From a virus, in IMG/VR virus record IMGVR_UViG_3300025010_000162, positions 1-33,563 of that record: a stretch of 33,563 nt of DNA, one strand, 5' to 3'. Positions 16,448 to 31,132 of this stretch are shown piece by piece. The position numbers were made by a program, and so were the translations under genes. The notes beneath the pieces were generated by a model that saw nothing but the letters and a program-made list of their open reading frames with translations, did no database searches and was not told the origin of the DNA. Numbering within the stretch: position 1 is the stretch's first letter; the number at the start of each line of letters is the position of its first letter.

Positions 16448-16482
16448 TTTTAAATCTTGTTAATAAACTAAAAGGTATATAA

Positions 16483-16743: not shown

Positions 16744-16748
16744 TGTAT

Positions 16749-16756: not shown

Positions 16757-16792
16757 TTTTGTCAATCAAAAACAAATTGAAAAAGGTTTGAT

Positions 16793-16987
16793 ATGGATAG
16801 TAAGTTAAATTTTATTGAAGCATCTAATCCATTTGAAAAGACCTTTGTTCTAAAAAACCATCATCATATAATATCTAAGCAAAAAACTATTACTGCTAAA
16901 AAGACTCTTGGTAGAAATGACTTTTGTTTTTGTGGTAGTGGAAAGAAATATAAATTTTGTTGTATTGATAAAAGAGGAATCATATGA
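16793..16987 (+). CDS. Small SEC-C motif protein, 64 aa
   Basis: The C-terminal part is LGRNDFCFCGSGKKYKFCC (39-57), a full SEC-C zinc motif with ligands Cys45, Cys47, Cys56 and Cys57 or a nearby His. In SecA this motif contacts SecB and the ribosome; it also occurs as a small adaptor in other proteins. Here it forms nearly the whole protein behind a short N-terminus with HHH. A decoy for SecA partners or a ribosome-binding factor are possibilities. ATGA overlap with the next gene. Confidence 0.88.
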   Translation: MDSKLNFIEASNPFEKTFVLKNHHHIISKQKTITAKKTLGRNDFCFCGSGKKYKFCCIDKRGII

Positions 16988-17355
16988 AACTCAATAAAGC
17001 TCAAATATCTGCAATTGCGTCAAAGATTAAAAATGCTAGAATATTACAGATTGTAAAAGAAAAGAAACGATTAGAAAAAGATGCATCAGTCAATTTATCC
17101 TTGGGTAACTGTTTAGCTATCATTAAGAGAGCAGAAGATTTATTGAATAAACTACCTTTTAAAGCAGATGTCTATATATCTTCTTATTCTGTAACAACTC
17201 AAGAATCTGCAGTTAAAGATAAATTAATTGATGCAAGAATTGAAGCTTTGAAAATTAATACTAATCATGAAAGTATAATGGAAGAGATTCAATTGGCTTT
17301 GATCGATTCAAAAGATCTTGAAACACTGTTAAGTAAATTTGATATTAAATTATAA
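16984..17355 (+). CDS. Helical hypothetical protein, 123 aa
   Basis: ATGA overlap with the SEC-C gene, RBS-like AGAGGAAT upstream. Lys/Glu-rich helices (SKIKNARILQIVKEKKRLEK), probably a coiled coil. Not recognised. The next ATG directly follows the stop. Confidence 0.75.
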   Translation: MKLNKAQISAIASKIKNARILQIVKEKKRLEKDASVNLSLGNCLAIIKRAEDLLNKLPFKADVYISSYSVTTQESAVKDKLIDARIEALKINTNHESIMEEIQLALIDSKDLETLLSKFDIKL

Positions 17356-17550
17356 ATGGAATCATTTCAATATATTCCAGAATATATTTTTTCAAAAGAG
17401 ATTCCAATGTGGGTTGATTCTTTGGTATTGGAGTTTAGAAAGAGAAATGGTATTAGAAAATCAAATAACTCTTTTGTTTACAGAGATGAATTACAGTTTG
17501 TACATAGAAATATGCCAAAGGTACTAGATTATTCAAAAGGGAATAAATAA
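17356..17550 (+). CDS. Small hypothetical protein, 64 aa
   Basis: ATG at 17356 follows the TAA directly. Contains FSKEIPMWVDSLVLEFRKRN. An overlapping ORF in another frame (17339-17527) is a shadow. Not recognised. Confidence 0.68.
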   Translation: MESFQYIPEYIFSKEIPMWVDSLVLEFRKRNGIRKSNNSFVYRDELQFVHRNMPKVLDYSKGNK

Positions 17551-17552
17551 CA

Positions 17553-18035
17553 ATGAAGCATTTGCAAAAACACTTGTTAATTATAATCGAAAAAGTAACA
17601 CCAGAATTAAGAATACTTATTACCAATTCAAAATTTGGTAGAAAGTTTAATGCTTTTTTTCTGAATGATGAAGACTCACAAGATTTTCATTTTATAATAC
17701 CTTCAGACTTAATTATACATAATATTGATGAAGATTTAAGAAATGAATTTGGTGTTTTGGAATTCCAAGTTTGTGCACTTCTTCCTGATAAGATATATAC
17801 TTCAATAGATAGTTCCAAAATACCAAATGCAAGATTTCTTGAAGATGCTGCAGAACACCTTGAGACACAGGCTCAGGTCTTCATTCAGAGGAGAAATAAG
17901 TCTCCTGAGCAATTCTTATCCAAGATGCTTGATAGAATACTTTTGTTTGCAATTGATCATATAAAGCCAGAATCAATTGAAGTACCCGTAAAATCATCTG
18001 TTACAATACATCAGTTTCCAAAGAGTACATCATAA
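17553..18035 (+). CDS. Hypothetical protein, 160 aa
   Basis: Begins 2 bases after the upstream stop (AAATAACAATG). Mixed alpha/beta with an acidic middle and VFIQRRNKSPEQFLSKMLDR. Not recognised. Soluble. Confidence 0.74.
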   Translation: MKHLQKHLLIIIEKVTPELRILITNSKFGRKFNAFFLNDEDSQDFHFIIPSDLIIHNIDEDLRNEFGVLEFQVCALLPDKIYTSIDSSKIPNARFLEDAAEHLETQAQVFIQRRNKSPEQFLSKMLDRILLFAIDHIKPESIEVPVKSSVTIHQFPKSTS

Positions 18036-18054
18036 TTTCAAATATAGGATAAAT

Positions 18055-18273
18055 ATGTTAAATGAGCTTATCTTATTAATTGTTTCATATGTGGTTCAAT
18101 TGTTTGTTCTCATAATACTTGTAATAGATGGATATCCATATATTGAAACTAAGAAACAATTTCACATTTTAATGATACCTTTTATTTTATGGTTTTTCTT
18201 GCTCTATAGAATGTGTATTAATCTAATTGATACTTTTAATGATATTAAAGAATATTTTAAGGATTTAGATTGA
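18055..18273 (+). CDS. Small membrane protein with two helices, 72 aa
   Basis: ATG with TAGGATAAAT upstream. Helices at about 3-25 (LNELILLIVSYVVQLFVLII) and 38-55 (ILMIPFILWFFLLY), and an acidic tail. Immediately precedes the triplicated Cys-rich family and overlaps its first member by one base (TGATG). Not recognised. Confidence 0.74.
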   Translation: MLNELILLIVSYVVQLFVLIILVIDGYPYIETKKQFHILMIPFILWFFLLYRMCINLIDTFNDIKEYFKDLD

Positions 18274-18689
18274 TGGGATATGGTCAAAAAAACATTGATG
18301 CACTTCAAGAAATTATTAAACGTTATGAGTCTATAACGGATGATATGATAAAAAAAGTATATGTTGAGTATAAAGAACGTCACCAATTATCCTTAATTAC
18401 TGAAAAAGAAATATGGGAAAGAATGCCATATCTTGTTAAAAAAGAATATATTTTGGATGGACATGAATGTTTATTATGTAAATCATTATATAAAGAGTCT
18501 GTTACTGATAAAAATTGTAAGTTTTGTATTTTATATGATAGACAAGAGTATAAATTTTGTACTTTTCATATTACTTATATATCTTTTGATTCAAATTGCA
18601 CAAATCATTTAATGGTTTATGAAATGATTAAAGCAAGGATTAATTATTTGAAAAAAGTATTAAAAGAAAAGGCTGGAATTGAATTATGA
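18273..18689 (+). CDS. Cys-rich protein, copy 1 of a tandem triplicate, 138 aa
   Basis: Start ATG 18273 overlaps the upstream TGA. Shares with the next two genes a helix (NIDALQEIIKRYESIT), a motif (E)CLLCKSL, a CKFCIL knuckle and a C-terminal helix ending ARINYLKKVL. The CxxC...CxxC...C pattern suggests one or two zinc sites. Not recognised as a known family; ATGA overlap with copy 2. Confidence 0.78.
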   Translation: MGYGQKNIDALQEIIKRYESITDDMIKKVYVEYKERHQLSLITEKEIWERMPYLVKKEYILDGHECLLCKSLYKESVTDKNCKFCILYDRQEYKFCTFHITYISFDSNCTNHLMVYEMIKARINYLKKVLKEKAGIEL

Positions 18690-19078
18690 TATACTCTAAA
18701 GAGCATATTGATGCTTTGAAAGAAGTCATTAAACGTTATGAGTCTATAACGGATATTGATATATTAAGAATACATTCTAAGCATAAAGCTACTTATCATC
18801 CTTATACTTGGGAAAAGATGCCTTATTTAATTAGAAAAGAATTAGTATTTGAAGATGGAGAATGTTTATTGTGTAAGTCCCTTAATAAAAATACTATTAT
18901 TGATAAAGAATGTATGAAATGTATTTTATTTGTTGATGAACATCCTTGTGTTAAGAGCTCTACCTACTTATTAATGGGAGAACACTGTCTTTCTATAATT
19001 CATCTTGTCAAACTTATTAATGCAAGAATTAAATATTTGAAAAGAATATTAAGTGAAAAAACAGGTGTTGAGCTATGA
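18686..19078 (+). CDS. Cys-rich protein, copy 2 of the triplicate, 130 aa
   Basis: ATGA overlaps on both sides. MIYSKEHIDALKEVIKRYES, ECLLCKSL, CMKCIL and ARIKYLKRIL align with copy 1. The DNA encoding the KRYESIT block is almost identical to copy 1 (AAACGTTATGAGTCTATAAC), so part of the duplication is recent or under conversion. Confidence 0.78.
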   Translation: MIYSKEHIDALKEVIKRYESITDIDILRIHSKHKATYHPYTWEKMPYLIRKELVFEDGECLLCKSLNKNTIIDKECMKCILFVDEHPCVKSSTYLLMGEHCLSIIHLVKLINARIKYLKRILSEKTGVEL

Positions 19079-19488
19079 CATATTCTAAAGAACATATTGA
19101 TACTTTAAAAGAGGTTATTCGACGATATAGAAGTATTACTGAGAAACAAGTTTATAAAGAATTAGAAGACTTTTCTGCAGGAAAAGTGCCCAAGAAATTA
19201 AAAAATAAATATGTTCTAAACGTATTTGGTACTTGTTTATTATGTGAGCAAGTTTATTTTCCATATCATTTTTTTGGTATGTCAGATAATTGTAATAAAT
19301 GTATTTTAGGTCAAGATGATCATTTTAAGAGATGTAAATCTCATCCTAGTTACATACTTTATGATTATGAGGATTTACCTCCCTCACCTAAAGCTATATT
19401 AAAATTGTTAAATGATAGAGCTGATTATCTTCAGTCTATTTTGAATAAATATTCAATGGAATTATTAGATGAGCTTAAGAAAGATTAA
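19075..19488 (+). CDS. Cys-rich protein, copy 3 of the triplicate, 137 aa
   Basis: ATGA overlap with copy 2. MTYSKEHIDTLKEVIRRYRS, CLLCEQVYF, CNKCIL and RADYLQSIL keep the family frame, but the middle is diverged and the C-terminus is longer. It overlaps the next gene by 20 bases. Confidence 0.77.
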   Translation: MTYSKEHIDTLKEVIRRYRSITEKQVYKELEDFSAGKVPKKLKNKYVLNVFGTCLLCEQVYFPYHFFGMSDNCNKCILGQDDHFKRCKSHPSYILYDYEDLPPSPKAILKLLNDRADYLQSILNKYSMELLDELKKD

Positions 19489-19660
19489 AACAGCCAGTAA
19501 GACTTTGAAGAAACAGCAGATTATTTCAAAAGCAACAACTTCAAAATTACAAGAAGCAGTTCCTGAATTATTGGATATATTACGCAGTGGAGACTATTCT
19601 CATAACAGGTCTCTTCAAACTATTGAAATAACAATCTCAGTAACTTATGACACTAAGTAA
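19469..19660 (+). CDS. Small basic hypothetical protein, 63 aa
   Basis: ATG at 19469 within the end of the upstream gene. Basic N-terminus (SLRKIKTASKTLKKQQ), then VPELLDILRSGDY and a beta-like tail. No strong ribosome-binding site; overlap suggests coupling. Not recognised. Confidence 0.62.
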   Translation: MSLRKIKTASKTLKKQQIISKATTSKLQEAVPELLDILRSGDYSHNRSLQTIEITISVTYDTK

Positions 19661-19841
19661 TATTAGAACAAAAATCATTTCTGAAAATATTAATATTGTT
19701 TTGAGACATGAGAAAGAATTAACTGATTGGGAATTAGGTTTCATAAAGAGTACGCATAAATATTATACTCAAAAAGGAGATCTTTCACCAAGACATTTTA
19801 ATACACTGAAGAATGTCGCAGATAAATATAGAAATAAATAA
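19647..19841 (+). CDS. Small basic hypothetical protein, 64 aa
   Basis: ATG at 19647 overlaps the upstream gene by 14 bases. Contains ELTDWELGFIKSTHKYYTQK and LSPRHFNTL, a pattern reminiscent of small phage proteins with an LTxWExxFI(xS) segment near recombination genes. Function not assigned. Confidence 0.66.
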   Translation: MTLSNIRTKIISENINIVLRHEKELTDWELGFIKSTHKYYTQKGDLSPRHFNTLKNVADKYRNK

Positions 19842-19854
19842 ATTGAGGTACAAA

Positions 19855-20319
19855 ATGAAAGCAGTAATAAAAATATCTGAAGATGAATTAATGAGTCGCT
19901 CTGATTGTGTTAAAGAGACCAGAGAAAATATTGATAAAATAGATGAGATCTTAGCTCATAAAGGCCCTATTCGAATTGATGGCTTCAAAATTAGATTGGC
20001 AAACGACCAGGATATTGATGATCAAACTACGATAACATTATCAGACGCTTTCATTGAAGACATTCTTTCAAAAACTGTTCTTGTAGATAGCCTTCTCAAA
20101 TTGAAGAAACAATATCAAGAGGTTATTGTTGGAGAGCTCACTTTTCCAATACTAGATAATAGTTTGATGAAAAATCTTTTGAATATTCGGTCTTATATAA
20201 TTGAATACAATAACTTGGAGTCAGAATACAAAGTTATTGACCGAATATATCTACCATCTGCTTTGCAAGGAATTCAAGAATTGATTGATAAGCTTGAGGT
20301 TAAAGATGAAAACTTATAA
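19855..20319 (+). CDS. Hypothetical coiled-coil protein, paralogue of the gene at 20520, 154 aa
   Basis: ATG at 19855 with ATTGAGGT upstream. Two helical segments flank a beta-like middle: NIDKIDEILAHKG, then IDDQTTITLSDAFIEDIL, then LLKLKKQYQEVIVGELTF. The gene at 20520 repeats this layout (NKIDEIDALLLKD, YIITISEDLLPDL, KLKNLRKNYIKFIEDELPF). Not recognised. Confidence 0.74.
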   Translation: MKAVIKISEDELMSRSDCVKETRENIDKIDEILAHKGPIRIDGFKIRLANDQDIDDQTTITLSDAFIEDILSKTVLVDSLLKLKKQYQEVIVGELTFPILDNSLMKNLLNIRSYIIEYNNLESEYKVIDRIYLPSALQGIQELIDKLEVKDENL

Positions 20320-20533
20320 TGAAATTGCTATTTTTGAGAGTATTGATAATACTAAAAGGATTGAAACAGAAGCCAATTTGTTTATGGAACATTTGAGAAA
20401 GACTAAGAATGATTTAACAATTAAAGTTCTATTATCAACCTCACAATCACATTCTCTTTATGGTGGTGCACCAATCACAACAACTATTTGTATACATTAT
20501 TCATATAAGGAAGACGTAAATGGGACAAATTAA
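20306..20533 (+). CDS. Small hypothetical protein, 75 aa
   Basis: ATG at 20306 with CTTGAGGT upstream; overlaps both neighbours by 14 bases. Sits between two paralogues. Contains a HSLYGGAPITTTICIHYSY strand-rich end. Not recognised. Confidence 0.7.
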   Translation: MKTYNEIAIFESIDNTKRIETEANLFMEHLRKTKNDLTIKVLLSTSQSHSLYGGAPITTTICIHYSYKEDVNGTN

Positions 20534-20828
20534 ATTGACTTTGCAAGAATTTCAAAAAAAGATTAAGATTATATCACAGCTTCAAAACAAGATAGATGAA
20601 ATTGATGCATTGTTGTTGAAAGATTCTGATTCAATTGAAGTTACTAATCTTTCATTGAGAAAAAGTTTGTTACCACATGAACCAAGATACATAATAACAA
20701 TTTCTGAAGATCTTTTACCTGACCTTGAATTAGAATCTGCTATTATTTCCAAATTGAAAAATTTGAGAAAGAATTATATTAAATTTATTGAAGATGAATT
20801 ACCTTTTAAAAATGGAGATGAATTGTGA
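20520..20828 (+). CDS. Hypothetical protein, shorter paralogue of the gene at 19855, 102 aa
   Basis: ATG at 20520 overlapping the upstream gene by 14 bases. Starts KLTLQEFQKKIKIISQLQNK and keeps the helix-beta-helix layout of its paralogue but lacks the last 40 or so residues. Its TGA overlaps a GTG that opens a very short related frame. Confidence 0.73.
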   Translation: MGQIKLTLQEFQKKIKIISQLQNKIDEIDALLLKDSDSIEVTNLSLRKSLLPHEPRYIITISEDLLPDLELESAIISKLKNLRKNYIKFIEDELPFKNGDEL

Positions 20829-20896
20829 AGTATTACGTGATGTCTATAGAAGAGTTTAAACAAAGGTTAAGTGACATCAATGCACTTGAAGTATAA
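20825..20896 (+). pseudogene. Truncated third copy of the 19855/20520 family
   Basis: GTGA overlap with the upstream gene. The frame encodes only KYYVMSIEEFKQRLSDINAL and EV before TAA. SIEEFKQRLSDINALE resembles LTLQEFQKKIKIISQLQ of the neighbour. After the stop the same frame continues INENEKLEIQKGNG before more stops. It is best read as a decayed duplicate; a functional 23-residue peptide is less likely. Confidence 0.45.
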
Positions 20897-20956
20897 ATTA
20901 ATGAAAATGAGAAGCTCGAGATTCAAAAAGGTAATGGAAATTAATAAAAAGGATAA

Positions 20957-21286
20957 ATGATGACATTAATAGATATTATTTTGTTTGTTATGACTTGGTC
21001 AATACTTTGTTCAATTTTCGCTGTAATTATCTATAAAATTGGCATAAAAACCAAAAAACAGATAGTGCCTACATCAAAATCATCTTCACTGAGAGCTCAT
21101 CAATCCAGAATCATATCCTCCAAGAATGCCCCGTTGGTCACAGATCTTCTCACTAAACATTTGAACGATATTCAGAAAGATCACCAAAATGACAATCTGA
21201 CTTTCACAACGCAGTATTCCACAGACCTGACATCTTGGTCGGTTCTGATCATCTGGTCTTGGGATGGTCCCACAGATACCATTTGA
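20957..21286 (+). CDS. Membrane-anchored protein with a compositionally foreign C-terminal half, 109 aa
   Basis: ATG with AAAAAGGATAA upstream. One membrane helix at about 3-26 (LIDIILFVMTWSILCSIFAV). From about residue 40 onward the codons switch from AT-rich to C-rich (TCC, CTC, ACC, GAC), coinciding with the start of a compositional island at about 21.07 kb. The C-terminus is polar and ends in a Trp-rich strand (SWSVLIIWSWDG). It may be an original short gene fused to inserted DNA. Not recognised. Confidence 0.58.
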   Translation: MMTLIDIILFVMTWSILCSIFAVIIYKIGIKTKKQIVPTSKSSSLRAHQSRIISSKNAPLVTDLLTKHLNDIQKDHQNDNLTFTTQYSTDLTSWSVLIIWSWDGPTDTI

Positions 21287-22264
21287 CTCTCTTTTCAAAA
21301 TATTGACTCCATATCCCATTCTCCACACACAGATAGTCCAATTCAATAAATTTTCCAAAATATCCAAAATACAATCATCTCCACATCTGGACACTTCACA
21401 GCCTCCGTCCGTCCTCTCACCCGCCACCTATCAAATTTATATTATAGTACTCATTACTTTGGGGGTGTACGTTAAAAGTTTGGTGCCCTTATAAGTTGTA
21501 TTCTTTATATAATAAATACTATTCATTATAAGACTTAAACTAAAAACAATAGCATTCCAAATACATACATTAACATAAATATATAAGGAAAATATGCTAA
21601 GAGTAATGTATTGAATGGATAAAATAAAATATCTTTTCAAAGAAAACTCTATCTTTTAACATACAATAGGAATAATAGTAGGATAATGAATGTAATGGAA
21701 AAGAAAAGGAAAAATGTAAATTTAACCGGCTGGGACGGATAAAATGGCTATAAGCTTAACCAGTTTTAAATGGCTAACCGGCTATGTTACTATGTATTAA
21801 TATTCAATAAAAGCGACCTGTCAGTTCCGTGCAGCCGCCATTAGGCTGGAATAGATGTTCCAGCAACTTGAAACATCTTGTAATTGATAGATGGAACAAA
21901 ATGTTCCACTGTTCCAGTAACTTGAAACGATGTTCCAGCTTCAAGCCGGTTAGCCAATGAGCCCCTAGTTTGTTTTTCTTTTCAATATAAGTAACTTTAT
22001 CTATCCAAAATGGCTCCCGTAGATTATTCAAGGATATCCAACGAACAGCTCTCAATAACCACACCAGATAGCAAATGTGCCCCTATTGCAAATTCCAATT
22101 GTATCCTTGGCATACTTTGGAGTCGTCGGGCTTTCTTTTGTAGTCGTTGGCAAACCTTGGTAAAAAGATACCATTGTTGCCAATATACAATACTTAGCCC
22201 AGATCTCCATCTTTGACCGGCTAATAGGCACAAACTATGGGATATAATACATAAGTTGAGGAAA
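21287..22264. other. Long non-coding stretch with C-rich and repeat-rich parts
   Basis: No convincing gene on either strand. 21287-21430 continues the pyrimidine-rich island of the upstream gene. 21430-21720 is plain AT-rich. 21722-21955 holds the iteron-like repeats listed next. 21960-22260 has mixed composition with TAGTCGT/AGTCGT repeats near 22122-22148 and another ACCGGCTAA at 22216-22224. The stretch ends at a recurring structured element and a promoter. Confidence 0.7.
21722..21955. repeat. Iteron-like cluster: ACCGGCT and GTTCCA motifs
   Basis: GGCTAACCGGCT (21772-21783) and its exact inverse AGCCGGTTAGCC (21944-21955) face each other, with TTAACCGGCT at 21722-21731. Between them GTTCCAGYAACTTGAAAC occurs at 21857-21874 and 21911-21928, with further GTTCCA at 21903 and 21932. 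Small hairpins are AGATGTT/AACATCT (21853-21878) and GGAACA/TGTTCC (21893-21907). AGCCGGTTAGCC returns at 27255. The layout resembles a replication origin, partition site or regulator-binding site. Confidence 0.6.
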
Positions 22265-22334
22265 GAAGCCCAGAATATAAGATATGATAGCTGCGACTTA
22301 CTTCGTCCACTGGACTCGCTGATTAATGATATAG
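22265..22334 (+). ncRNA. Recurring intergenic element, copy 1
   Basis: GAAGCCCAGAATATAAGATA (22265-22284) is followed by a GTCC...GGAC hairpin and GACTCGCTGATTAATGATAT. It aligns, with gaps, to 24419-24481 (copy 2). It lies 16 bases before a promoter box. A transcribed small RNA, a transposed repeat or a protein-binding site are all possible. Confidence 0.45.
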
Positions 22335-22350
22335 GATTAGATAGCTGTAT

Positions 22351-22358
22351 TATATTTG
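22351..22358 (+). promoter_or_regulatory. Bacteroidota-type promoter (TATATTTG)
   Basis: CTGTATTATATTTGTTTTGT followed by CAATTAAATAA; 34 bases before the ATG at 22393. Confidence 0.76.
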
Positions 22359-22392
22359 TTTTGTCAATTAAATAATAAAATTGAGGTACCAG

Positions 22393-22692
22393 ATGCCATT
22401 TACAATTAATGCAGAAAAACATCTTTACTCCGATGCTATTGAAGAATATTATCATACTATAAAACCTAATATTAAAGCAAAATTTACTCATTATGATTTA
22501 TCACAGCTAACGGATGATCCAGGTAATACAACTCTACATATGGTATCTATTAATGCTGGTTATGATAATCTAATGTCCAAACAAGAAGTTGAAGGATTGA
22601 AAGAGTATTTTAACATCACATTTGATGATGAAACAATGGTTTGGATCTCTCAAAATAATGAAGATATTTTTATTATAAGCTCCATACAGTAA
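22393..22692 (+). CDS. Acidic hypothetical protein, 99 aa
   Basis: ATG at 22393 with ATTGAGGT upstream; the in-frame TTG at 22381 is the ribosome-binding site. Acidic, mixed alpha/beta, ends DDETMVWISQNNEDIFIISS. Isolated between two non-coding stretches with its own promoter. Not recognised. Confidence 0.74.
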   Translation: MPFTINAEKHLYSDAIEEYYHTIKPNIKAKFTHYDLSQLTDDPGNTTLHMVSINAGYDNLMSKQEVEGLKEYFNITFDDETMVWISQNNEDIFIISSIQ

Positions 22693-22913
22693 CATTTTAT
22701 TGCGCGCTATCATCTGGGCAAAGATGTCAGCTATCTCACCCATATGGATGATACACTAATGTCCCAGAAAGTTATATAACTTTCAGACGTCTGGACAAGC
22801 AGGCATAACTGATAATTATAATAATCTTTTTGGGGCAGAGGTGTGCTCTTAGATTGCTCTGTTATATATGTTAATAAAGTTAAAAAATGGTTGATAATAT
22901 TGATAAAAGTATT
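22693..22913. other. Non-coding stretch with palindromes
   Basis: GAAAGTTATATAACTTTC (22767-22784) is an 18-bp perfect palindrome, directly followed by CAGACGTCTG (22784-22793), a 10-bp perfect palindrome. GTCCCAG upstream can pair with CTGGAC downstream to enclose both. No gene seen. Possible operator or RNA hairpin. Confidence 0.6.
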
Positions 22914-22921
22914 TATTTTTG
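22914..22921 (+). promoter_or_regulatory. Bacteroidota-type promoter (TATTTTTG)
   Basis: AGTATTTATTTTTGAATTGT followed by CAATTAAAATAAAA; 45 bases before the ATG at 22966. It overlaps the upstream in-frame codons of the ORF, ruling out a start at 22843. Confidence 0.68.
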
Positions 22922-22965
22922 AATTGTCAATTAAAATAAAAAATAATTCAAAAGGAGGCAACGTA

Positions 22966-23490
22966 ATGCAACAATATTTTGATACAATCAATTTGAAGCA
23001 GGTAAGAATAAAAGTACATCATAATACAAAATGCTTTTGTTCTACCCTTCCTAAACAAAAAACATACTTAACTGAAGCGGAAGAAGCTCAAAAAATTAAA
23101 GATGCTCAAAGAACAAAATTATTGAATATGTATAAAGAATCAAATAGGGTAAAGCCTTTTGTTCTTGAATTGAATCAAGCTATTGCAGCCAAAAACAATC
23201 CTCTCCTTGTTGAGTTAATAACCAAATATGGTATGGAATTTGGCTTCTTTAATAAAAAAATTGAATCACTAATTGCTCAAAAACCAATCCTCATTTCAAA
23301 AATTGTTATAAATCATTATTTAAAAACTCTTGATGATACAAGTCAAACAATCCGTTCTTCAAAATTCATCCCATTGAAGCTTAAATATACAATATCAAAG
23401 AAGGATAAAGAAAGGCATAATAGGGTTGAAGAAGAAATTAAAAAATTGAATCCAAATTATGAAATGAACCTTTATATTATTGAAGACTAA
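22966..23490 (+). CDS. Basic hypothetical protein, 174 aa
   Basis: ATG with a strong AAAGGAGG site. Starts with a beta part and CFCSTLP, then a helical body (TEAEEAQKIKDAQRTKLLNM). Basic C-terminal region (KFIPLKLKYTISKKDKERH). First of three genes with unusually strong GGAGG sites. Not recognised. Confidence 0.77.
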   Translation: MQQYFDTINLKQVRIKVHHNTKCFCSTLPKQKTYLTEAEEAQKIKDAQRTKLLNMYKESNRVKPFVLELNQAIAAKNNPLLVELITKYGMEFGFFNKKIESLIAQKPILISKIVINHYLKTLDDTSQTIRSSKFIPLKLKYTISKKDKERHNRVEEEIKKLNPNYEMNLYIIED

Positions 23491-23519
23491 TTAACTAATA
23501 AGCTATAAGGAGGCAAAAA

Positions 23520-23915
23520 ATGGAAGTTTACCAAGATACACTGCGGATTAAAACAATTAAAAATGTTCCTCCAACTCAAGCGGAAGTAATACAAAAAGCA
23601 CAAATAAAGATAGATGAATATTATTCTGAAAACGTTATTAATGGCATTAGAACTTCAATTGATGAAAAAAAGATACTCAAAGAAGAACAAGAATATAGAA
23701 GATCTGATTGGGGTAAAATCAGGAATAAAAGACTGGCACAGTTTGATGCATTTATTGATGGGATAGAAGATCCGGAATTAGCAGATTATCTTATTATCTG
23801 TAGTACAAGATTGTTTGGGAAGCCTGAACCCGAAGAGTTGAGGTTAATTCGGGAATACAAAAAGAAGTTTGGTAATGTTAAAAAGATTTATTCACATATA
23901 AATGAGGAGGATTGA
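23520..23915 (+). CDS. Charged hypothetical protein, 131 aa
   Basis: ATG with AAGGAGGCAAAAA upstream. Highly charged helices (DEKKILKEEQEYRRSDWGKI). No membrane helix or Cys motif. Not recognised; in the same transcript as its neighbours. Confidence 0.76.
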   Translation: MEVYQDTLRIKTIKNVPPTQAEVIQKAQIKIDEYYSENVINGIRTSIDEKKILKEEQEYRRSDWGKIRNKRLAQFDAFIDGIEDPELADYLIICSTRLFGKPEPEELRLIREYKKKFGNVKKIYSHINEED

Positions 23916-23917
23916 AA

Positions 23918-24334
23918 ATGAAACAAGATGTAATTGCAAAAGTATATGTTAATGCTGACGGAGTTGATCTTGGTACTACATTTATTAAAGCTCATTATAC
24001 TAATCCAGACTTTGGTATAAGACCTGAGTGGGAAGAATACAAAGATGGAGAACAACGTAGGATAGATGCTATTAATGCAATATCAAAACATATTGGCTCT
24101 ATGGTCATATTATTTACTTGGGTTGAGCTACACGGTGCTTATTCAATCTCGGCTACATTCCATTTTAAAGAAGCTTTTGTCTCTCACGGGCTTTTGATTA
24201 AAGAAGAATATGCAGAAGATCAGAAGATTTGGGATGCTTTCATAAAGGCTTTATTGAATGATGAGCAATGGAATGATGTATTTGCGGAAGCGGGTGTTGA
24301 TAGAACAATATTATTTTATTGTGAATCATATTAG
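23918..24334 (+). CDS. Hypothetical protein, 138 aa
   Basis: ATG at 23918 with GAGGAGG upstream; the TTG at 23912 is less likely. Alpha/beta with VELHGAYSISATFHFKEAF and an acidic second half ending FYCESY. Not recognised. Followed by a structured non-coding region. Confidence 0.76.
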   Translation: MKQDVIAKVYVNADGVDLGTTFIKAHYTNPDFGIRPEWEEYKDGEQRRIDAINAISKHIGSMVILFTWVELHGAYSISATFHFKEAFVSHGLLIKEEYAEDQKIWDAFIKALLNDEQWNDVFAEAGVDRTILFYCESY

Positions 24335-24335
24335 A

Positions 24336-24482
24336 TAGCTAAGAACTTGTAGATATAAGAAAGCTTATTAATAAGAAGTAAGCCTCTATGTTTCAAAGAT
24401 AAGAGGGCTCTGAAGTAGGAAGCCGGCAGGATAATATAAGATGGTAGGACGAAGTCCGATGGGTTCGCTGATGATATTATCT
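24336..24482 (+). ncRNA. Recurring intergenic element, copy 2, inside a structured region
   Basis: From 5': palindrome CTTATTAATAAG (24364-24375); AGCCTCT (24381-24387) pairing with AGAGGGCT with one bulge; then the element GAAGCCGGCAGGATAATATAAG (starting 24419). GATAATAT (24430-24437) pairs with ATATTATC (24474-24481), enclosing hairpin GGAC-GAA-GTCC (24447-24457) and GGGTTCGCTGATG. Three helices in about 120 bases suggest a folded RNA. No ORF. It is related to the element at 22265 and more loosely to 25351-25376 and 25593-25640. Confidence 0.5.
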
Positions 24483-24560
24483 AAAATTAGAGATGTTTTT
24501 ATGTTTGGTAATTAAATTATAAAAAGTTAAATAAATGTTGACAAAAGAAAATTTAGATAT

Positions 24561-24568
24561 TAATTTTG
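24561..24568 (+). promoter_or_regulatory. Bacteroidota-type promoter (TAATTTTG)
   Basis: GATATTAATTTTGAAATATC followed by AATTTTATAAAA, close to the class at 6010 and 6545. 45 bases before the ATG at 24613. Another box, TATGTTTG, is at 24500-24507. Confidence 0.55.
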
Positions 24569-24612
24569 AAATATCAATTTTATAAAATAATATTAATTGA
24601 GGAGAAGTTCAG

Positions 24613-24834
24613 ATGATTAATTTAAATTTATTGTCTCATTTTGTTCTAGGCTATATAATTGAATCTTTTTTATCATCAAGAGAGAAATCATATTATGCTT
24701 CAACTTCAGAGAGAGAAGACTATTTGAATGGTTTTCAAAATAAGTTACTTGAAGAAGTAAAGATTAGAGGATTTGACTCTTTTGATTCATTTATTAAATT
24801 TGTTAATCTTGAGTTGAAAAGAGTATATAAATAA
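24613..24834 (+). CDS. Small hypothetical protein, 73 aa
   Basis: ATG with TTGAGGAGAAG upstream. Helical, with a short hydrophobic N-terminus (LNLLSHFVLGYIIESFL) and a charged body. Not recognised. Confidence 0.7.
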   Translation: MINLNLLSHFVLGYIIESFLSSREKSYYASTSEREDYLNGFQNKLLEEVKIRGFDSFDSFIKFVNLELKRVYK

Positions 24835-24844
24835 ACGGATGTAT

Positions 24845-24852
24845 TATATTTG
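24845..24852 (+). promoter_or_regulatory. Bacteroidota-type promoter (TATATTTG), best-conserved class
   Basis: GATGTATTATATTTGTTTTG followed by TCAATCAAAAA. 37 bases before the ATG at 24889; it covers the TTG at 24850, so that is not a start. Confidence 0.78.
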
Positions 24853-24888
24853 TTTTGTCAATCAAAAATAATATTTAAGGAAATTAAA

Positions 24889-25233
24889 ATGGCTACTAGA
24901 ACTACACTTCAAAATAACATTAACAAATTAAAAATGATCGTTATATCAGAAACAGGATCGCCGAACAAAAAGGGCTTTAAGAGAACAAAACCTCTTTATA
25001 AAATGAATTTTGTTCAAGCTCTTCACCGGATTGGTTTTAATAACTACGCGTTGGCTAAAGCTGCTGGTATGAGTATTGCAGACTTTAAAGCTATCACCGG
25101 TATATCAATTCAAGAAGCAAAAGAAAACAAATCGTTGCAATTAAAAAGATCGAAACTGAACATGGCTTTATCTACATTGGCTAATAGAGTTATTCGTCAT
25201 AATGGAAAAGCCGGATATGTTCTCGGATATTAA
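24889..25233 (+). CDS. Basic protein with a helix-turn-helix-like segment, 114 aa
   Basis: ATG at 24889 with TAAGGAAAT upstream. Very basic N-terminal half (NKKGFKRTKPLYK). A segment FNNYALAKAAGMSIADFKAI (51-70) then TGISIQEAKENK looks like a helix-turn-helix of the LAKAAGMS...F....G.S type. A DNA-binding regulator is likely by look; no family named. A clean terminator follows. Confidence 0.72.
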   Translation: MATRTTLQNNINKLKMIVISETGSPNKKGFKRTKPLYKMNFVQALHRIGFNNYALAKAAGMSIADFKAITGISIQEAKENKSLQLKRSKLNMALSTLANRVIRHNGKAGYVLGY

Positions 25234-25267
25234 TTAGTAGCCTCCTTAACTATTTATGATTGACTTG

Positions 25268-25300
25268 ATCCCGGATCATATTAACCATCCGGGATTTTTT
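25268..25300 (+). terminator. Intrinsic terminator
   Basis: ATCCCGGAT (25268-25276) pairs with ATCCGGGAT (25287-25295) around a 10-base loop, followed by TTTTT. It ends the transcript of the gene at 24889. Confidence 0.85.
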
Positions 25301-25718
25301 ATGCGCGCAAATGGACAGAGATAAGCCTGCGAACACCATGGAAGTGGGTAGTTATAATATAAGGATAAGATATGGCTTTTACGATTTTACCTATTACACA
25401 ACTCACCCAATACTTCTCACAAAATTTTTACATTTCACCTTATATAACCAAATATAATACTTATCTATTCACCACCCACTTTACACTTGTCAATACACAA
25501 TTCCCTACATTGTAATGTATATAATATACAAAGCAATTGAAACAACATGAACAACAAACTATATTAAGACCTTAATATCGGATTAGCCATATAGGATAAT
25601 AAGATACTAATGTCCGATTTCCACGGGATTCGCTATAAGTATAAAGTATTTAAATCTAAAGCAATTTCACGGGAGTCGCAAACTACATTAAGACCTTAAT
25701 ATCTTTTTTAGGTACATC
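25301..25718. other. Non-coding stretch with a direct repeat pair and further copies of the recurring element
   Basis: No gene on either strand. 25351-25376 has TTATAATATAAGGATAAG, like the core of the recurring element. 25375-25520 is markedly pyrimidine-rich on the plus strand. A 25-bp direct repeat (24 of 25 identical, core ATTAAGACCTTAATATC) lies at 25555-25579 and 25679-25703, bracketing 99 bases. Inside are GGATAATAAGATACTAATGT (25594-25613) and GGGATTCGCT (25625-25634), a third, looser copy of the element. Confidence 0.65.
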
Positions 25719-25750
25719 GAAAAGCGGATTGTTAGTCCGCTTTTCTTTTT
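25719..25750 (+). terminator. Intrinsic terminator facing the minus-strand genes
   Basis: GAAAAGCGGA (25719-25728) pairs perfectly with TCCGCTTTTC (25736-25745) around TTGTTAG, followed by TTTTTATT. Strongest on the plus strand, but the A-run before the stem lets it work partly for the minus-strand gene ending at 25752. It separates the converging transcripts. Confidence 0.82.
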
Positions 25751-25751
25751 A

Positions 25752-26270
25752 TTACTTAGCTTCGGTTTTAACTTCGGTTTTAACTTCGGTTTTAGCTTCG
25801 GTTTTGGCTTTGGTTTCGGCTTTGGTTTCAATTTTACTTTGAACAGTTTCAACTTTTGAAAATCGTTTTTTCAATCCGGTTAAGCTGAAAAGTAAAACGT
25901 TTCCTTTTTCAACGAATGAAACTGCGCAAATATCACCATCAATAGAAACAAACTTCTTTGAGTTAGCAATTTCTTGAATAGCTTCAAAGTTTAAACCGCC
26001 ATCTTTTACCACTTGATTTTGAGAGATACCCAAATTTTTACTTTTTTGGCAATAGTGCCTAAAACTTGAAAAAGGCTCAATTTTTGATGAATGGTTTTTT
26101 AAACCAATTCCTGAGTAACTGCCTAAGTAAATGTTTCCAGCTTGCAGGTGAGTTTTTAAATTCTTACTCTCATCAGTTGAAAAGGGGACTTCAAGGGCTT
26201 TTTGAGCTTCTGAAGATTGGGAAGTCCGTGAGTTAATGTTTACGGAATCACTGAATTTTTGCTCTGACAT
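25752..26270 (-). CDS. Hypothetical protein with a C-terminal KTEx repeat tail, 172 aa
   Basis: Minus strand, ATG with ATAGGAGTAATATT upstream. The N-terminal part is Ser-rich and polar; the middle (about 75-145) is a folded-looking part with NQVVKDGGLNFEAIQEIANS and GDICAVSFVEKGNVLLFSLT. It ends in a tail of short repeats (KTEAKTEVKTEVKTEAK). The repeats are encoded by near-identical TTCGGTTTTA-type units and probably vary in number by slippage. Downstream-most gene of the minus-strand group. Not recognised. Confidence 0.8.
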   Translation of the reverse strand: MSEQKFSDSVNINSRTSQSSEAQKALEVPFSTDESKNLKTHLQAGNIYLGSYSGIGLKNHSSKIEPFSSFRHYCQKSKNLGISQNQVVKDGGLNFEAIQEIANSKKFVSIDGDICAVSFVEKGNVLLFSLTGLKKRFSKVETVQSKIETKAETKAKTEAKTEVKTEVKTEAK

Positions 26271-26303
26271 AATATTACTCCTATTTGATTTGGTTTTTAT
26301 TTT

Positions 26304-26326
26304 AGCTTAATTACCTTAATTAAGCT
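26304..26326. promoter_or_regulatory. Inverted repeat upstream of the 26270 gene
   Basis: AGCTTAATT (26304-26312) and AATTAAGCT (26318-26326), 9 perfect pairs, loop ACCTT. It has no U-tract on either strand and lies 34 bases before the minus-strand start at 26270, so an operator is more likely than a terminator. Confidence 0.4.
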
Positions 26327-26405
26327 GTTTAAAAATAATTTCTTTTTTTACTAAAGTCAAGTTATTTTTTTATAAAGTTGCTTTTTATAAAGTTATATCT
26401 TAAGT

Positions 26406-26579
26406 CTAAAACTTATAAATTTGTTGTTTAATGTCATTTTTTAAGTCATGTTTCAAACCATTATATTTAACCTCAGTTTGAAAAATTGGACTTGGTTTTT
26501 TTTGTTCATTTAAAGCTATGGAATGCCTTACCATATTAGCCGATACATAACTTTTCTTTTTATTAATTTGATTTGCCAT
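26406..26579 (-). CDS. Small basic hypothetical protein, 57 aa
   Basis: Minus strand. The ATG at 26579 (MANQINKKKSYVSANMVRHS) is preferred to the one at 26615 because AAGGGTAATAGC precedes it and because the region upstream encodes another small gene. Basic, soluble. Not recognised. Confidence 0.66.
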   Translation of the reverse strand: MANQINKKKSYVSANMVRHSIALNEQKKPSPIFQTEVKYNGLKHDLKNDIKQQIYKF

Positions 26580-26589
26580 GCTATTACCC

Positions 26590-26715
26590 TTAAAATATAA
26601 AATTAAATGATTCATTATTTAAATACCATGCCCACCCCAATAACCAAAAAATACCGCTTAATATTGCTAAAAATAAACCTACTCCATTTTCTTGCTTATC
26701 TTCAACTATTTTCAT
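26590..26715 (-). CDS. Small membrane protein, 41 aa
   Basis: Minus strand. ATG one base after the upstream TAA, with AGAGGT at good spacing. The product begins MKIVEDKQENG and has one clear membrane helix (VGLFLAILSGIFWLLGWAW). It is too short for usual ORF cut-offs but fills the gap between two minus-strand genes exactly. Function unknown. Confidence 0.68.
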   Translation of the reverse strand: MKIVEDKQENGVGLFLAILSGIFWLLGWAWYLNNESFNFIF

Positions 26716-26716
26716 T

Positions 26717-26971
26717 TTAACCTCTTAATATGTGATTGTTTAAGTCTTGATTATTATTTCTTTTATTTCCTGATGTTAATTTTGCTGTTGCAACCTCATC
26801 AATTAGAACCCTAAAAACTTGATTTTGATGAATTAAAGTTGCTTCTGTTTTATTAAGATTTAAAACTATAGTCCAACCCTTGTATCTCCCATAGGTTACT
26901 TTAGATTCAAAGTATCTTATTTTGTTTCCAATTGCAGTAACTATTCTAAATTCTTTTTTTATTGTTTCCAT
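26717..26971 (-). CDS. Small hypothetical protein, 84 aa, first gene of the minus-strand group
   Basis: Minus strand. Beta-rich (EFRIVTAIGNKIRYFESKVT, then GRYKGWTIVLNLNKTEATLI). TTGAGATATAAAC precedes the ATG. A possible promoter on the minus strand reads TTGTATTATAGTTGTCAAG near 27190-27210, a partial match to the phage promoter. Not recognised. Confidence 0.72.
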   Translation of the reverse strand: METIKKEFRIVTAIGNKIRYFESKVTYGRYKGWTIVLNLNKTEATLIHQNQVFRVLIDEVATAKLTSGNKRNNNQDLNNHILRG

Positions 26972-27719
26972 GTTTATATCTCAATTAATTACTAAATGAA
27001 ACTTAATGAATGTATAAACAAAAATCAATACTTTGTAAAAATAAATAATATATATTTTGTGAACTATCAAGACTCAAACTATTACAACTCAAAAAAAGTT
27101 TCAAAGATATATGACGGGCGTCGCCTTGTCTATACACCATAACCTTGAAAATAAGCATTTCTACTGTGGACATGTTTCCGTCTTTGTCACTTGACAACTA
27201 TAATACAACTCAATTGACAACTTTTTTTATCAATGAGAAGCCCGTATCCGGAATAGCCGGTTAGCCACTAAAGCTGATTAGCCACTAAAGCTGATTAGCC
27301 ACTAAAGCTGATTAGCCAATATCCAATCATCCAATCATCCAATTATTCCACCTATTAACAACTCGCAACGATTTCAAAGTCTAGTCATCTTCCAAAAAAT
27401 TTCTTAAAAAATTTTTGAACTTACCCGACTCATCCGTCTTTCACATGCCTAAAAAATCTTCACTCAACTTGCAAGCGGCTTCCAATTTGAAATTATACTG
27501 AGATATTGAATATCCTTTAATTTTGGATTTTCATAAAACTAATCCAGTGTAAGCAGGACTATATAATTGATAAAATATACGCTAACAAATATCTCCATAT
27601 TCCCAAATTATAATAAAATTGTATCGCTGTGCTTTGATTGAGTTCTTAGCATATATAGATGGGATAGGCTAAATAAAGCCATTTTAATTTTCCGTAAAAA
27701 CATAAGTGATCTATCCTAG
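26972..27719. other. Long non-coding stretch between divergent gene groups
   Basis: No gene seen on either strand. It separates the minus-strand group from the packaging genes, so it should hold promoters for both. Visible items: two TTGACAACT copies (27191-27199 and 27214-27222), the AGCCGGTTAGCC motif and 17-bp tandem repeat at 27255-27317, ATCCA repeats at 27321-27342, and GGATAG (27662-27667) with CTATCC (27713-27718) bracketing the base before the ATG at 27720. Confidence 0.7.
27255..27317. repeat. AGCCGGTTAGCC motif and three 17-bp tandem repeats
   Basis: AGCCGGTTAGCC (27255-27266) runs into three exact copies of TTAGCCACTAAAGCTGA (27261-27277, 27278-27294, 27295-27311) and a fourth partial TTAGCCAAT. 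The 12-base motif is identical to one at 21944-21955. Exact 17-bp iterons are typical of replication origins, partition sites and regulator arrays. Confidence 0.75.
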
Positions 27720-28496
27720 ATGGCAAAACAACAGATAAGACTCGGATCTCTCTCAGAACAATCAAAGACCAAAGATGACCCTGGACAATTTATAAAGACT
27801 GTTAGCAGGCAGATTAGTGGCATACGGAAACTTAAAAAACTCCAAGGATATCGGGTTGAAGAAGATACAGCTGAGAGCACTCATTGGTTGATATCGCCAG
27901 AAGGAGTTAAACTAAGAAAAATCTGTGGCCATAGAACAACATATGGTCCATGCCTTTTGACTGCAGGATGGGGATCAGATCACAAAGGATTCGGAAAATG
28001 TTCGAATCACGGTCGACGGTCATTGTATAATATTCAGCTTTCAACGGCACACAGGCTCCCAGCACGGATGTCAGAATTATTGGAACATGCAGAGGAGCTG
28101 GAGGAGAAAGATCTCATGTCTGTTGACACAGAGATCAAAATGCTATATGCTTTGCAAAACTATATTATGACAATGGGTGAAGAAATGACTCTCGACCAAA
28201 TTGAGACTGTCAGAGGTATCACACTTGATTTGGTGAAAGCCAAGGGTCTGAAAAACAAAATACAGCGAGAATTGCGTCTCGATGCAACCTCCGTCAGAGA
28301 ATTTGTCCAACAGATATTTGAGATCATTGCTGGAAGAATTCGCGGCCCAGAGGCTAAGAACCTCATGAACGATATTCTGAATCAAGTCATCATTCCGTTT
28401 AGAAATAAAGATAGAATACATTCTGGAGAAATAGATCCAGACCAAATGAAAAATTCATTTTTGAAAAAAGTTGAAGCTGCTATTCCTGTGGAGTAA
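27720..28496 (+). CDS. Probable terminase small subunit with a zinc-binding module
   Basis: 258 residues. A zinc-type motif lies at about 69-98: CGHRTTYGPC (Cys69, Cys78), then AGWGSDHKGFGKCSNHG with His88, Cys94 and His97. This CGxxTxxGxPC...AGxGTDHxGxGxCxxHG pattern is common in phage small-terminase-like proteins. Helices follow (about 112-250), with EIKMLYALQNYIM and LDLVKAKGLKNKIQRELRLD suited to oligomerisation. TerS binds the packaging start site and loads TerL. Position ahead of TerL supports the call. Codons are less AT-rich (CTC, CGG, GTC) than in neighbouring genes. No Shine-Dalgarno site is visible before the ATG (TATCCTAG). Confidence 0.68.
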   Translation: MAKQQIRLGSLSEQSKTKDDPGQFIKTVSRQISGIRKLKKLQGYRVEEDTAESTHWLISPEGVKLRKICGHRTTYGPCLLTAGWGSDHKGFGKCSNHGRRSLYNIQLSTAHRLPARMSELLEHAEELEEKDLMSVDTEIKMLYALQNYIMTMGEEMTLDQIETVRGITLDLVKAKGLKNKIQRELRLDATSVREFVQQIFEIIAGRIRGPEAKNLMNDILNQVIIPFRNKDRIHSGEIDPDQMKNSFLKKVEAAIPVE

Positions 28497-28498
28497 TC

Positions 28499-28705
28499 AT
28501 GGCTGGAGTTGTGAATTCTGAAACATATTATCTTGGTGCAATCAAAGCTAAAAGGCCGAAAGGTTTTCTGGGGAAATGGTATTTCATTGACCTGAGATTA
28601 TGCTCTGATAAAGAAGCCATATTAAATAGATTAAAAACTTTCTCAGACTTTGAGTATGACAAGAAATTGTATACTCTGAAAGAAGAAGATGCTGAGAAAG
28701 TATGA
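28499..28705 (+). CDS. Small hypothetical protein, 68 aa
   Basis: ATG two bases after the upstream stop. Basic with FLGKWYFIDLRLCSDKEAIL. ATGA overlap with the next gene. Not recognised. Confidence 0.72.
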   Translation: MAGVVNSETYYLGAIKAKRPKGFLGKWYFIDLRLCSDKEAILNRLKTFSDFEYDKKLYTLKEEDAEKV

Positions 28706-28875
28706 AGACCTATGTTGATGTTGCGGCTTGGTTAGCCGGTCCTGGTTATAAACCAGTGTATATTCAATGTTGGATTATGCACAAATATAGTGACAGAGTC
28801 TATGCCAGAATAAAAGGTTTTACTCTACCAGGCTGGATACCAAAAACATATATCATAACTGAGAAAAGCTCTTAA
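28702..28875 (+). CDS. Small hypothetical protein, 57 aa
   Basis: ATGA overlap with the upstream gene. Product begins MKTYVDVAAWLAGPGYKPVY and is Tyr/Trp-rich with two Cys-free strands and KGFTLPGWIPKTYII near the end. Too short for usual cut-offs but fills the gap exactly with coherent composition. Not recognised. Confidence 0.62.
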   Translation: MKTYVDVAAWLAGPGYKPVYIQCWIMHKYSDRVYARIKGFTLPGWIPKTYIITEKSS

Positions 28876-28893
28876 AACTCTTGGAGACTATAA

Positions 28894-29112
28894 ATGGCAA
28901 GAATTATTATTGAACAAGATGACAAAACTGTTATAACTTTGGAAGGATATGAAGCTAGTAAATGGATGTCAAATAATTTGTTAATGGCAAGTAATGCACA
29001 AAAACATGGATGCAATCCTTTCGAAAATGACCCAATAAAATGGAATACTTATCTTCCTACAAATCCTGAAAATAGTTATATCAGAAATAGGATAAATGAG
29101 ATTTTTGAATGA
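28894..29112 (+). CDS. Small hypothetical protein, 72 aa
   Basis: ATG with CTTGGAGACTATAA upstream. Acidic, with KTVITLEGYEASKWMSNNLL. Codon use returns to AT-rich. Not recognised. Confidence 0.7.
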   Translation: MARIIIEQDDKTVITLEGYEASKWMSNNLLMASNAQKHGCNPFENDPIKWNTYLPTNPENSYIRNRINEIFE

Positions 29113-29177
29113 AACTAGAATGGACAAATCAGAAACCAGATCACTGGAGGATAAAATTAGATTATGATGAAACTTAA
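29109..29177 (+). CDS. Possible micro-protein, 22 aa
   Basis: ATGA overlap with the upstream gene; product MKLEWTNQKPDHWRIKLDYD then ET. It ends 11 bases into the next gene. The junction style favours it, but length makes it uncertain; it may instead serve only to couple translation. Confidence 0.33.
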   Translation: MKLEWTNQKPDHWRIKLDYDET

Positions 29178-29415
29178 GAAAGATGATTTAATATTAGTTG
29201 ATTGGGTAGATTCAAGTGGTCAACCGGGTTGGTTGAGTAAACAAGATTGTCATATTGATATATCACAGTGTCAATCGGTAGGTTTTCTAATTGAATATAC
29301 TAAAGAAGGTATTTGTTTAGCAGAAAGTCGTTGTACTACAATAGACCATAGGCCTTATAGTGGATTAACATCTATACCAAAACAAGCAATTATAAAAATA
29401 AAGAAGCTAAAGTAA
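29164..29415 (+). CDS. Small hypothetical protein, 83 aa
   Basis: ATG ATG start, preceded by ACTGGAGGATAAAAT. A beta-rich fold (DLILVDWVDSSGQPGWLS, then CQSVGFLIEYTKEGICLAES). Similar small beta proteins sit near terminase genes in some phages, as remembered. TAATG junction with the TerL ATPase gene. Confidence 0.74.
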   Translation: MMKLKKDDLILVDWVDSSGQPGWLSKQDCHIDISQCQSVGFLIEYTKEGICLAESRCTTIDHRPYSGLTSIPKQAIIKIKKLK

Positions 29416-30521
29416 TGGCAAAAAAAGATGAATCACAAGATTATTTATATAAGTTCGCACAAGACTATATAGATGATTATAATAAAAAGACCACTGGAGC
29501 TGTTTTTGAGTGGAATCAACGTATTGCTAATGAGTTTGCACAGATCCCTATTGAAACTTTGATAAAAGATCCATACTTTTTAGGTTTTGGAGATAAAGTT
29601 TATGATGGTGTTTTACAAGATATAGTAGATTTGTTTGAAGAGAGAAAGAAAAGACAGGTAAACTTAGTTATTTTCATGGAAGGAATCGGCTCTGGTAAGA
29701 CAACTAAGTCTTCTATTATTACTTGGCTTCAATGGTTTGAATTGTCCTTGATTGATAACCCACAAGATTACTTTGATTTAGCTCCAAGCTCAGTTATAGC
29801 ATTGATTAATATGAACCGCACAGAGAAACAAGCTAAAAAGGTAACATTCACTGAAGTCTTTAATCGCTTCCAGTGTGGATTTAATAAAGACTATTTTCCT
29901 ATTGATTCAAGATTTACAACTGAGATCCGGATCTCAAGAAACAATACTACAATTTTCCCTGGTACAAGCTCTGCTCTTTCAGCATTGGGCTATAACTTAT
30001 ATGGGAGTATTATCGATGAAGCTGCTTTTTTGGAAGTTACTGAGGATTCTAATAAGACTGTTGATGGGAGTTTTGATGCTTGTGAAGAGATGTATAATGC
30101 TATTTACAACAGAATGACTTCAAGATTTATGAAACATGGTAAATTACCAGGTATGATCTGTATGATTAGTTCTCCAAACTTTCCCGATGATTTTATGCAT
30201 AAACAGATGGAATTGCATGATAAAATTGTAAAGGAAGCAAAAGAAAAGGGTACTATTCCAGATTCTGGAATCTTTTACAGAAGAAGACCCATGTGGGAAG
30301 CAAAAGGGCATAAATTTTACCCTGAATTTAATGGAGGTTATGATGAAGATGGAAAACTCCATAAAAAAGATAATTTTTATATTGATACTGATAATGCAGA
30401 GATTATATCTGATCCAAAAGTCATAGAATTACTTGATGCTGCTGATGCTGCAAACTTTCCAATTGTGTCAATGGAAGCTGAATACCTTTCAAAAGTTGCT
30501 AAGTACTTAAAGGTAGGTTAA
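29415..30521 (+). CDS. terL: Terminase large subunit, ATPase domain only (split TerL)
   Basis: 368 residues. Walker A at 90-97 (GIGSGKTT), Walker B at 196-202 (YGSIIDE, Asp201-Glu202) and a coupling motif ISSP (251-254). This is the motor half of TerL, which pumps DNA into the prohead. The protein stops at a point where other TerL proteins go on to a linker and the RNase H-like nuclease; that nuclease is encoded separately at 31376. TAATG overlap upstream and TAATG junction with the exonuclease gene downstream. The stop is clean (AGGTTAATG), with no sign of a simple frameshift. Confidence 0.92.
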   Translation: MAKKDESQDYLYKFAQDYIDDYNKKTTGAVFEWNQRIANEFAQIPIETLIKDPYFLGFGDKVYDGVLQDIVDLFEERKKRQVNLVIFMEGIGSGKTTKSSIITWLQWFELSLIDNPQDYFDLAPSSVIALINMNRTEKQAKKVTFTEVFNRFQCGFNKDYFPIDSRFTTEIRISRNNTTIFPGTSSALSALGYNLYGSIIDEAAFLEVTEDSNKTVDGSFDACEEMYNAIYNRMTSRFMKHGKLPGMICMISSPNFPDDFMHKQMELHDKIVKEAKEKGTIPDSGIFYRRRPMWEAKGHKFYPEFNGGYDEDGKLHKKDNFYIDTDNAEIISDPKVIELLDAADAANFPIVSMEAEYLSKVAKYLKVG

Positions 30522-31132
30522 TGAGTGAAGTAAGTCGATTATTGATTTTACAGAAAGACTTAATAAAACTAATAGAAGAACCCATAGAAGAGGAAGATAT
30601 GCATAACATACCCACATTTAATGTTGTTGATTTAGAAACTACTAATTTGAGTCCTAATGTAGGAGGTGAAGTAGCTGAAATAGCAATTATAAAAGTTATA
30701 GGTAATCAAGTAAAAGATGTATATCATAAGTTTTATTCTATTAAAAGCATCTCAGATAAAGCTGCTGAAAGAAATGGCTTATCAGTTGATTTATTGAAAG
30801 GATTTCCATCATTTAATACCAAAGAAGTCATAAAAGAAGTGAAAGAAGTACTTGGAGAACATCCAATATATGCACACAGTGCCGCTTTTGAACATGCTTT
30901 TCTAGAATTTTATGGTGCTACTGCTCCTAATCATGTTTATATTGACACATTAAAATTATGTAGAGAATCAAGGAATAAACTAGTAAACAATCAATTATCA
31001 ACTTGGACTTCTACTATGAAGATAACTCATCGGCCTCATGGAGCTTTATCAGATGCAATTGCACTAACCAATTTAATTTTACTCATGGGTTGGCAAATTA
31101 ATCTACTAGATATAGTAGGGAATAAAAAATGA
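30521..31132 (+). CDS. DEDDh-type 3'-5' exonuclease (DnaQ-like) inserted within the terminase
   Basis: 203 residues. ExoI motif FNVVDLETTN (33-42) with Asp37 and Glu39; ExoII region IYAHSAAFEHAFLEF (116-130), where the usual Asp is Glu124; ExoIII HGALSDA (173-179) with His173 and Asp178. This family removes nucleotides from 3' ends of DNA or RNA. Placed between the two TerL halves and coupled to both sides (TAATG, ATGA), it could act on DNA ends during packaging. The first 30 residues are an acidic extension before the fold. The Glu in ExoII may reduce activity or change metal use. Confidence 0.88.
   Translation: MSEVSRLLILQKDLIKLIEEPIEEEDMHNIPTFNVVDLETTNLSPNVGGEVAEIAIIKVIGNQVKDVYHKFYSIKSISDKAAERNGLSVDLLKGFPSFNTKEVIKEVKEVLGEHPIYAHSAAFEHAFLEFYGATAPNHVYIDTLKLCRESRNKLVNNQLSTWTSTMKITHRPHGALSDAIALTNLILLMGWQINLLDIVGNKK

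What the first reader, a model, noticed from the sequence alone, without database searches (positions are those of the whole stretch)
22265..25640. A recurring structured intergenic element
Blocks at 22265-22334 and 24419-24481 share GAAGCC, an AATATAAGAT core, a GTCC/GGAC hairpin and TCGCTGAT...TGATAT in order; 25351-25376 and 25593-25640 share parts. Copy 2 closes on itself by GATAATAT/ATATTATC. Each copy lies in a gene-free gap between short operons. They could be a family of phage small RNAs, a small mobile repeat, or binding sites that space the operons.
Basis: seen in the sequence. Interest (0 to 1): 0.55.

Follow-up and report, generated by a model that had tools for sequence, protein, structure and literature searches.

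The report
Duplicated regulatory spacer beside phage genes
A short stretch of non-coding DNA next to gene-switching signals has been duplicated within one small region of a poorly known bacterial virus; it looks more like ordinary control DNA than a new RNA, and my searches found it only in this virus.

Summary
The two main blocks are truly related: copy 1 (22257-22343) and copy 2 (24411-24493) share 57 of 88 aligned columns, and 0 of 1000 dinucleotide shuffles reach their score. A third copy (25565-25661) is probable but weak. The fourth claimed copy (25351-25376) is not a forward copy; its opposite strand (25389-25329) resembles copy 3 instead. The RNA reading fails the tests I could run: no copy folds better than shuffles, the consensus structures do not beat column shuffles, and the 'GTCC/GGAC hairpin' has its arms in opposite order in the two copies. 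A sequence model found no further convincing copy in two overlapping contigs of the same phage. Two well-specified pattern scans of IMG/VR gave only the phage's own copies as plausible members. The copy 1/copy 2 similarity runs on into a promoter-like motif (4 to 20 of 2000 shuffles) that occurs 15 times in the window. Best reading: a locally duplicated operon-boundary cassette, a cis-acting DNA box ahead of a phage promoter, comparable to promoter/stem-loop cassettes and start-associated repeats of other phages. Function is inferred. Interest is low.

The parts
22257..22343 (+). copy 1 (E1) of the element
   Evidence: local alignment to copy 2, 0 of 1000 shuffles; leave-one-out nhmmer E 0.045 from copies 2+3
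22347..22375 (+). promoter-like motif P directly after copy 1
   Evidence: 38.0 bits in the P matrix, of which it is a training site; ORF start at 22393
24411..24493 (+). copy 2 (E2) of the element
   Evidence: same alignment; leave-one-out nhmmer E 0.017 from copies 1+3
24494..24540 (+). possible decayed P motif directly after copy 2
   Evidence: E1 tail against E2 tail: 4, 5 and 20 of 2000 shuffles under three scoring schemes; not among the 40 best matches of the ungapped P matrix
24557..24585 (+). P motif further downstream of copy 2
   Evidence: 14.1 bits, not a training site; ORF start at 24613
25565..25661 (+). copy 3 (E4), weaker member, no P motif found after it
   Evidence: 5 of 1000 shuffles against copy 1; leave-one-out E 0.66; tail against the E1 tail not significant, 1218 to 1681 of 2000
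25329..25389 (-). reverse-strand partner of copy 3 (E3r)
   Evidence: 61 nt ungapped, 40 identical, 2 of 1000 shuffles
25665..25679 (+). isolated 15-nt core-like site (E5)
   Evidence: held-out matrix rank 6 in the window, 16.7 against 16.8 bits for an unrelated site at 149; R1 model E 1.01

Best explanation
The blocks are diverged copies of one non-coding cassette that arose by local duplication inside a gene-poor control tract (about 21.6-27.7 kb) of a dsDNA phage. In copies 1 and 2 the cassette is an 83-87 bp box followed at once by a promoter-like motif (decayed in copy 2) that drives the next short operon. The box most likely acts as DNA: a regulator, of phage or host, would bind its conserved blocks (AGCC, ATAAGAT and TCC...GG...TCGC) and adjust firing of the adjoining promoter or insulate neighbouring transcription units. 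Copy 3 and its inverted partner would be older copies that lost, or never had, the promoter. Shown: homology of copies 1 and 2, its extension into the promoter-like motif, and absence of conserved RNA structure by the tests used. Inferred: that P is a promoter, that a protein binds the box, and that it regulates.
For: Copy 1/copy 2 homology, 0 of 1000 shuffles. Homology continues into the P motif, 4, 5 and 20 of 2000 shuffles under three schemes. P matrix: 15 plus-strand sites at 13.7 bits or more, next best 9.8; 11 of the 15 were training sites. 13 of the 15 have an ORF of at least 45 aa starting 38-56 nt after the motif start. On the two phage contigs the P pattern has 9 forward and 3 reverse matches on G001 and 3 reverse on G002, with 0 for the backwards control. 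Copies fold no better than shuffles; no consensus structure. The repeat finder also shows other local duplications in this phage, such as 4718-4817 with 4888-4987 and 13105-13404 with 13596-13895.
Against: The decayed P after copy 2 is not among the 40 best matrix matches, and the E1 tail matches the real P gap (24541-24612) just as well, so the extension may partly reflect shared promoter sequence. 13 of the 15 P motifs have no recognised element ahead of them (one search found only three full copies). Copy 3 and its inverted partner have no P. No binding protein is identified and no expression data exist. The inverted partner contradicts a strict orientation rule.
Confidence: 0.45

Rival explanations
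1. Non-functional remnants: a piece of operon-boundary DNA was duplicated once or twice and has drifted, with the remaining identity reflecting common descent rather than function.
For: Only one pair is beyond doubt; copy 3 is marginal; the phage shows other local duplications; no copy outside the tract.
Against: Identity is clustered in blocks (AGCC, ATAAGAT, TCC..GG..TCGC) that recur in the weaker copies, although the sites were partly chosen because they matched.
Confidence: 0.3
2. A family of small structured RNAs made by the phage.
For: The copies keep word order over 80-110 nt; the gap 25304-25752 is bounded by terminator-like hairpins and folds mildly better than shuffles on both strands (z -1.91, 6 of 100; z -2.01, 4 of 100); 21641-22392 also (z -1.86, 1 of 20).
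Against: Single-copy fold z-scores -0.39, +0.48, +0.66, +0.04; consensus fold energies reached by 54 to 300 of 300 column shuffles; hairpin arms not homologous; gap 24335-24612 folds like shuffles (52 of 200); no Rfam match at gathering score.
Confidence: 0.12
3. Parts of a replication, packaging or partition region: the tract also holds 17-nt tandem repeats (27255-27322), AACCGGCT/GCCGGTTA words and a 105-nt G-free run, so the copies may be initiator or centromere sites.
For: Four tandem 17-nt units at 27255, 27272, 27289 and 27306, with one related unit at 21944; the two 8-mer words 4 times each in the tract and 0 in the rest of the window; longest G-free run in the window at 25384-25488, next 52 nt.
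Confidence: 0.1

Closest known systems
PeSLs (promoter early stem loops) of T4-type phages
   Same: Intergenic cassettes pairing a promoter with another conserved feature, spaced among short genes.
   Different: Here no conserved stem-loop was found, only two copies carry a promoter-like motif, and no sister genome shows shuffling. I saw only passages that cite PeSLs (PMC4503421, PMC3950731); the original papers were not held.
SAS/ESAS repeats of Cluster K mycobacteriophages
   Same: A short motif recurring ahead of many genes (like P), with a longer extra element directly upstream of only some of them (like the box).
   Different: SAS lies at translation starts and ESAS is a 17-bp imperfect inverted repeat; the box here has no consistent inverted repeat and P lies 38-56 nt before the start codon. 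Passages read in PMC3203893.
Stoperators of Cluster A mycobacteriophages
   Same: Asymmetric sites in short intergenic gaps between transcription units.
   Different: Stoperators are 13-mers at more than twenty places, oriented with transcription. Here three full copies, one inverted partner, and no known repressor. Abstract and an introduction passage seen in PMC9283540.
TATA-like plus inverted-repeat motif of archaeal virus HGTV-1
   Same: A conserved promoter-like motif with an extra element ahead of many genes.
   Different: The inverted repeat is not conserved here. Seen only as a passage in PMC3950731.

Membership tests
PeSL cassette (T4-type phages) | promoter within the cassette | tested here: inconclusive
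   P motif directly after copy 1, decayed after copy 2, not found after copy 3; promoter activity unknown
PeSL cassette (T4-type phages) | conserved stem-loop | tested here: not met
   no conserved structure among the copies
PeSL cassette (T4-type phages) | mediates gene shuffling between related genomes | not testable with these tools
   only identical or near-identical contigs of the same phage were found
SAS/ESAS (Cluster K phages) | 17-bp imperfect inverted repeat upstream of a start-associated motif | tested here: not met
   arms in different order in copies 1 and 2; no consensus pairing
Stoperator | many short asymmetric sites oriented with transcription | tested here: not met
   matrix finds five sites, one on the opposite strand, before unrelated sites
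Stoperator | bound by a phage repressor | not testable with these tools
   no binding data
Rfam RNA family | match at the family's gathering score | tested here: not met
   0 matches in the window; 7 sub-threshold matches at E up to 5 in 21500-27720, two of them touching 25631-25754
ParB/parS partition site | ParB-family protein in the genome | tested here: not met
   no PF02195 on G001 or G002; the genome may be incomplete

The most novel reading that the evidence does not exclude
The copies, the inverted pair, the G-free run, the tandem 17-nt repeats and the AACCGGCT words together form one multi-part control centre of an uncharacterised phage lineage, in which a phage protein reads the box to switch operons or start replication.
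Probability: 0.1. Interest if true: 0.45.

Novelty: new member of a known kind. Interest (0 to 1): 0.2.

Why it matters
If the box is a regulator site, it gives a handle on how an unstudied phage lineage separates its many short operons, and the 15-copy promoter-like motif beside it is a ready test set. Otherwise it is a caution: order-preserving word matches in AT-rich gaps can look like a structured RNA family without being one.

Tried and rejected
Small-RNA reading: single folds, long-gap folds and consensus folds gave no structure specific to the copies. Mobile-element reading: no integrase family, no further copies. Partition reading: no ParB_N. tRNA-like reading: ARAGORN finds one tRNA, at 1654-1727. 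Coding reading: by eye the copies are in different frames and hold stops. Relatives: proteins from the window and its sister contig brought in only contigs of the same phage (99.9 to 100% identical) apart from two distant DnaB matches at 28-29%. blastn of copies 1 and 2 against phage records gave only chance-level matches (best E 0.3 and 4); copy 3 was not searched that way. A crAss-like assignment, my first guess, was not confirmed: the portal protein has no tblastn match in phage records, and terminase models PF03237 (G001 only) and phrog_2 (both contigs) found nothing.

Pattern scans: one search gave 42 stretches, 2 of them the phage's own (copies 1 and 2); the other 40 I judged by eye as unrelated and later scanned with the sequence model. 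One search gave 5, 2 of them the phage's own (holding copies 1, 2 and 3); the other 3 had no model match. One search was my mistake: the pattern was one base short and could not match copy 3, so its 15 stretches say nothing. The model over those 40 + 15 loci gave one weak match, L014 368-426 minus strand, E 0.023, away from the pattern site and low in G+C; I take it as chance but did not pursue it. In one search, 6 stretches held the P motif; the 2 outside this phage share one and the same surrounding sequence and had no model match.

Full report
Setting. The window is an identical piece of IMG/VR record 3300025000_000075 (79,949 nt, handle G001); BLAST showed 100% over window 14889-33563, and other loci place the whole window at G001 43540-77102. 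A second contig, 3300025073_000045 (77,451 nt, G002), carries an identical DnaB protein and overlaps G001, judging by shared motif spacing. The phage encodes DnaB, an ATP-dependent ligase, a 5'-3' exonuclease, a DEAD-type helicase and a portal-like protein, and a Band 7 protein. One protein (6550-7245) resembles Campylobacter phage proteins at about 31%; the host is unknown.

Noticed in passing
window, 15 sites: 491, 611, 3527, 5073, 6006, 6541, 9071, 11384, 12920, 15008, 16745, 22347, 22910, 24557, 24841 (+): A 25-29 nt promoter-like motif ahead of 13 ORF starts; also on the reverse strand of the phage contigs, which I did not map against genes there.
   Followed up: partly
22735-22850 (+): Strong predicted RNA hairpin in the gap after gene 22393-22692, z -5.48, 0 of 200 shuffles; no Rfam match.
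   Followed up: no
27255-27322 and 21944 (+): Four 17-nt tandem repeats (AGCTGATTAGCCACTAA type) ahead of an uncharacterised 258-aa gene, and one related unit at 21944; AACCGGCT/GCCGGTTA words cluster in the same tract.
   Followed up: partly
25384-25488 (+): 105 nt without a single G, twice the next longest run in the window; C-rich, possibly a Rho-type site.
   Followed up: no
4718-4817 and 4888-4987 (+): Duplicated intergenic segment holding GAGGCCTCT palindromes, 74% identical.
   Followed up: no
25555-25579 and 25679-25703 (+): 25-nt direct repeat, 24 of 25 identical, flanking copy 3.
   Followed up: no
1654-1727 (+): tRNA gene with an unassigned four-base anticodon call (gaaa).
   Followed up: no
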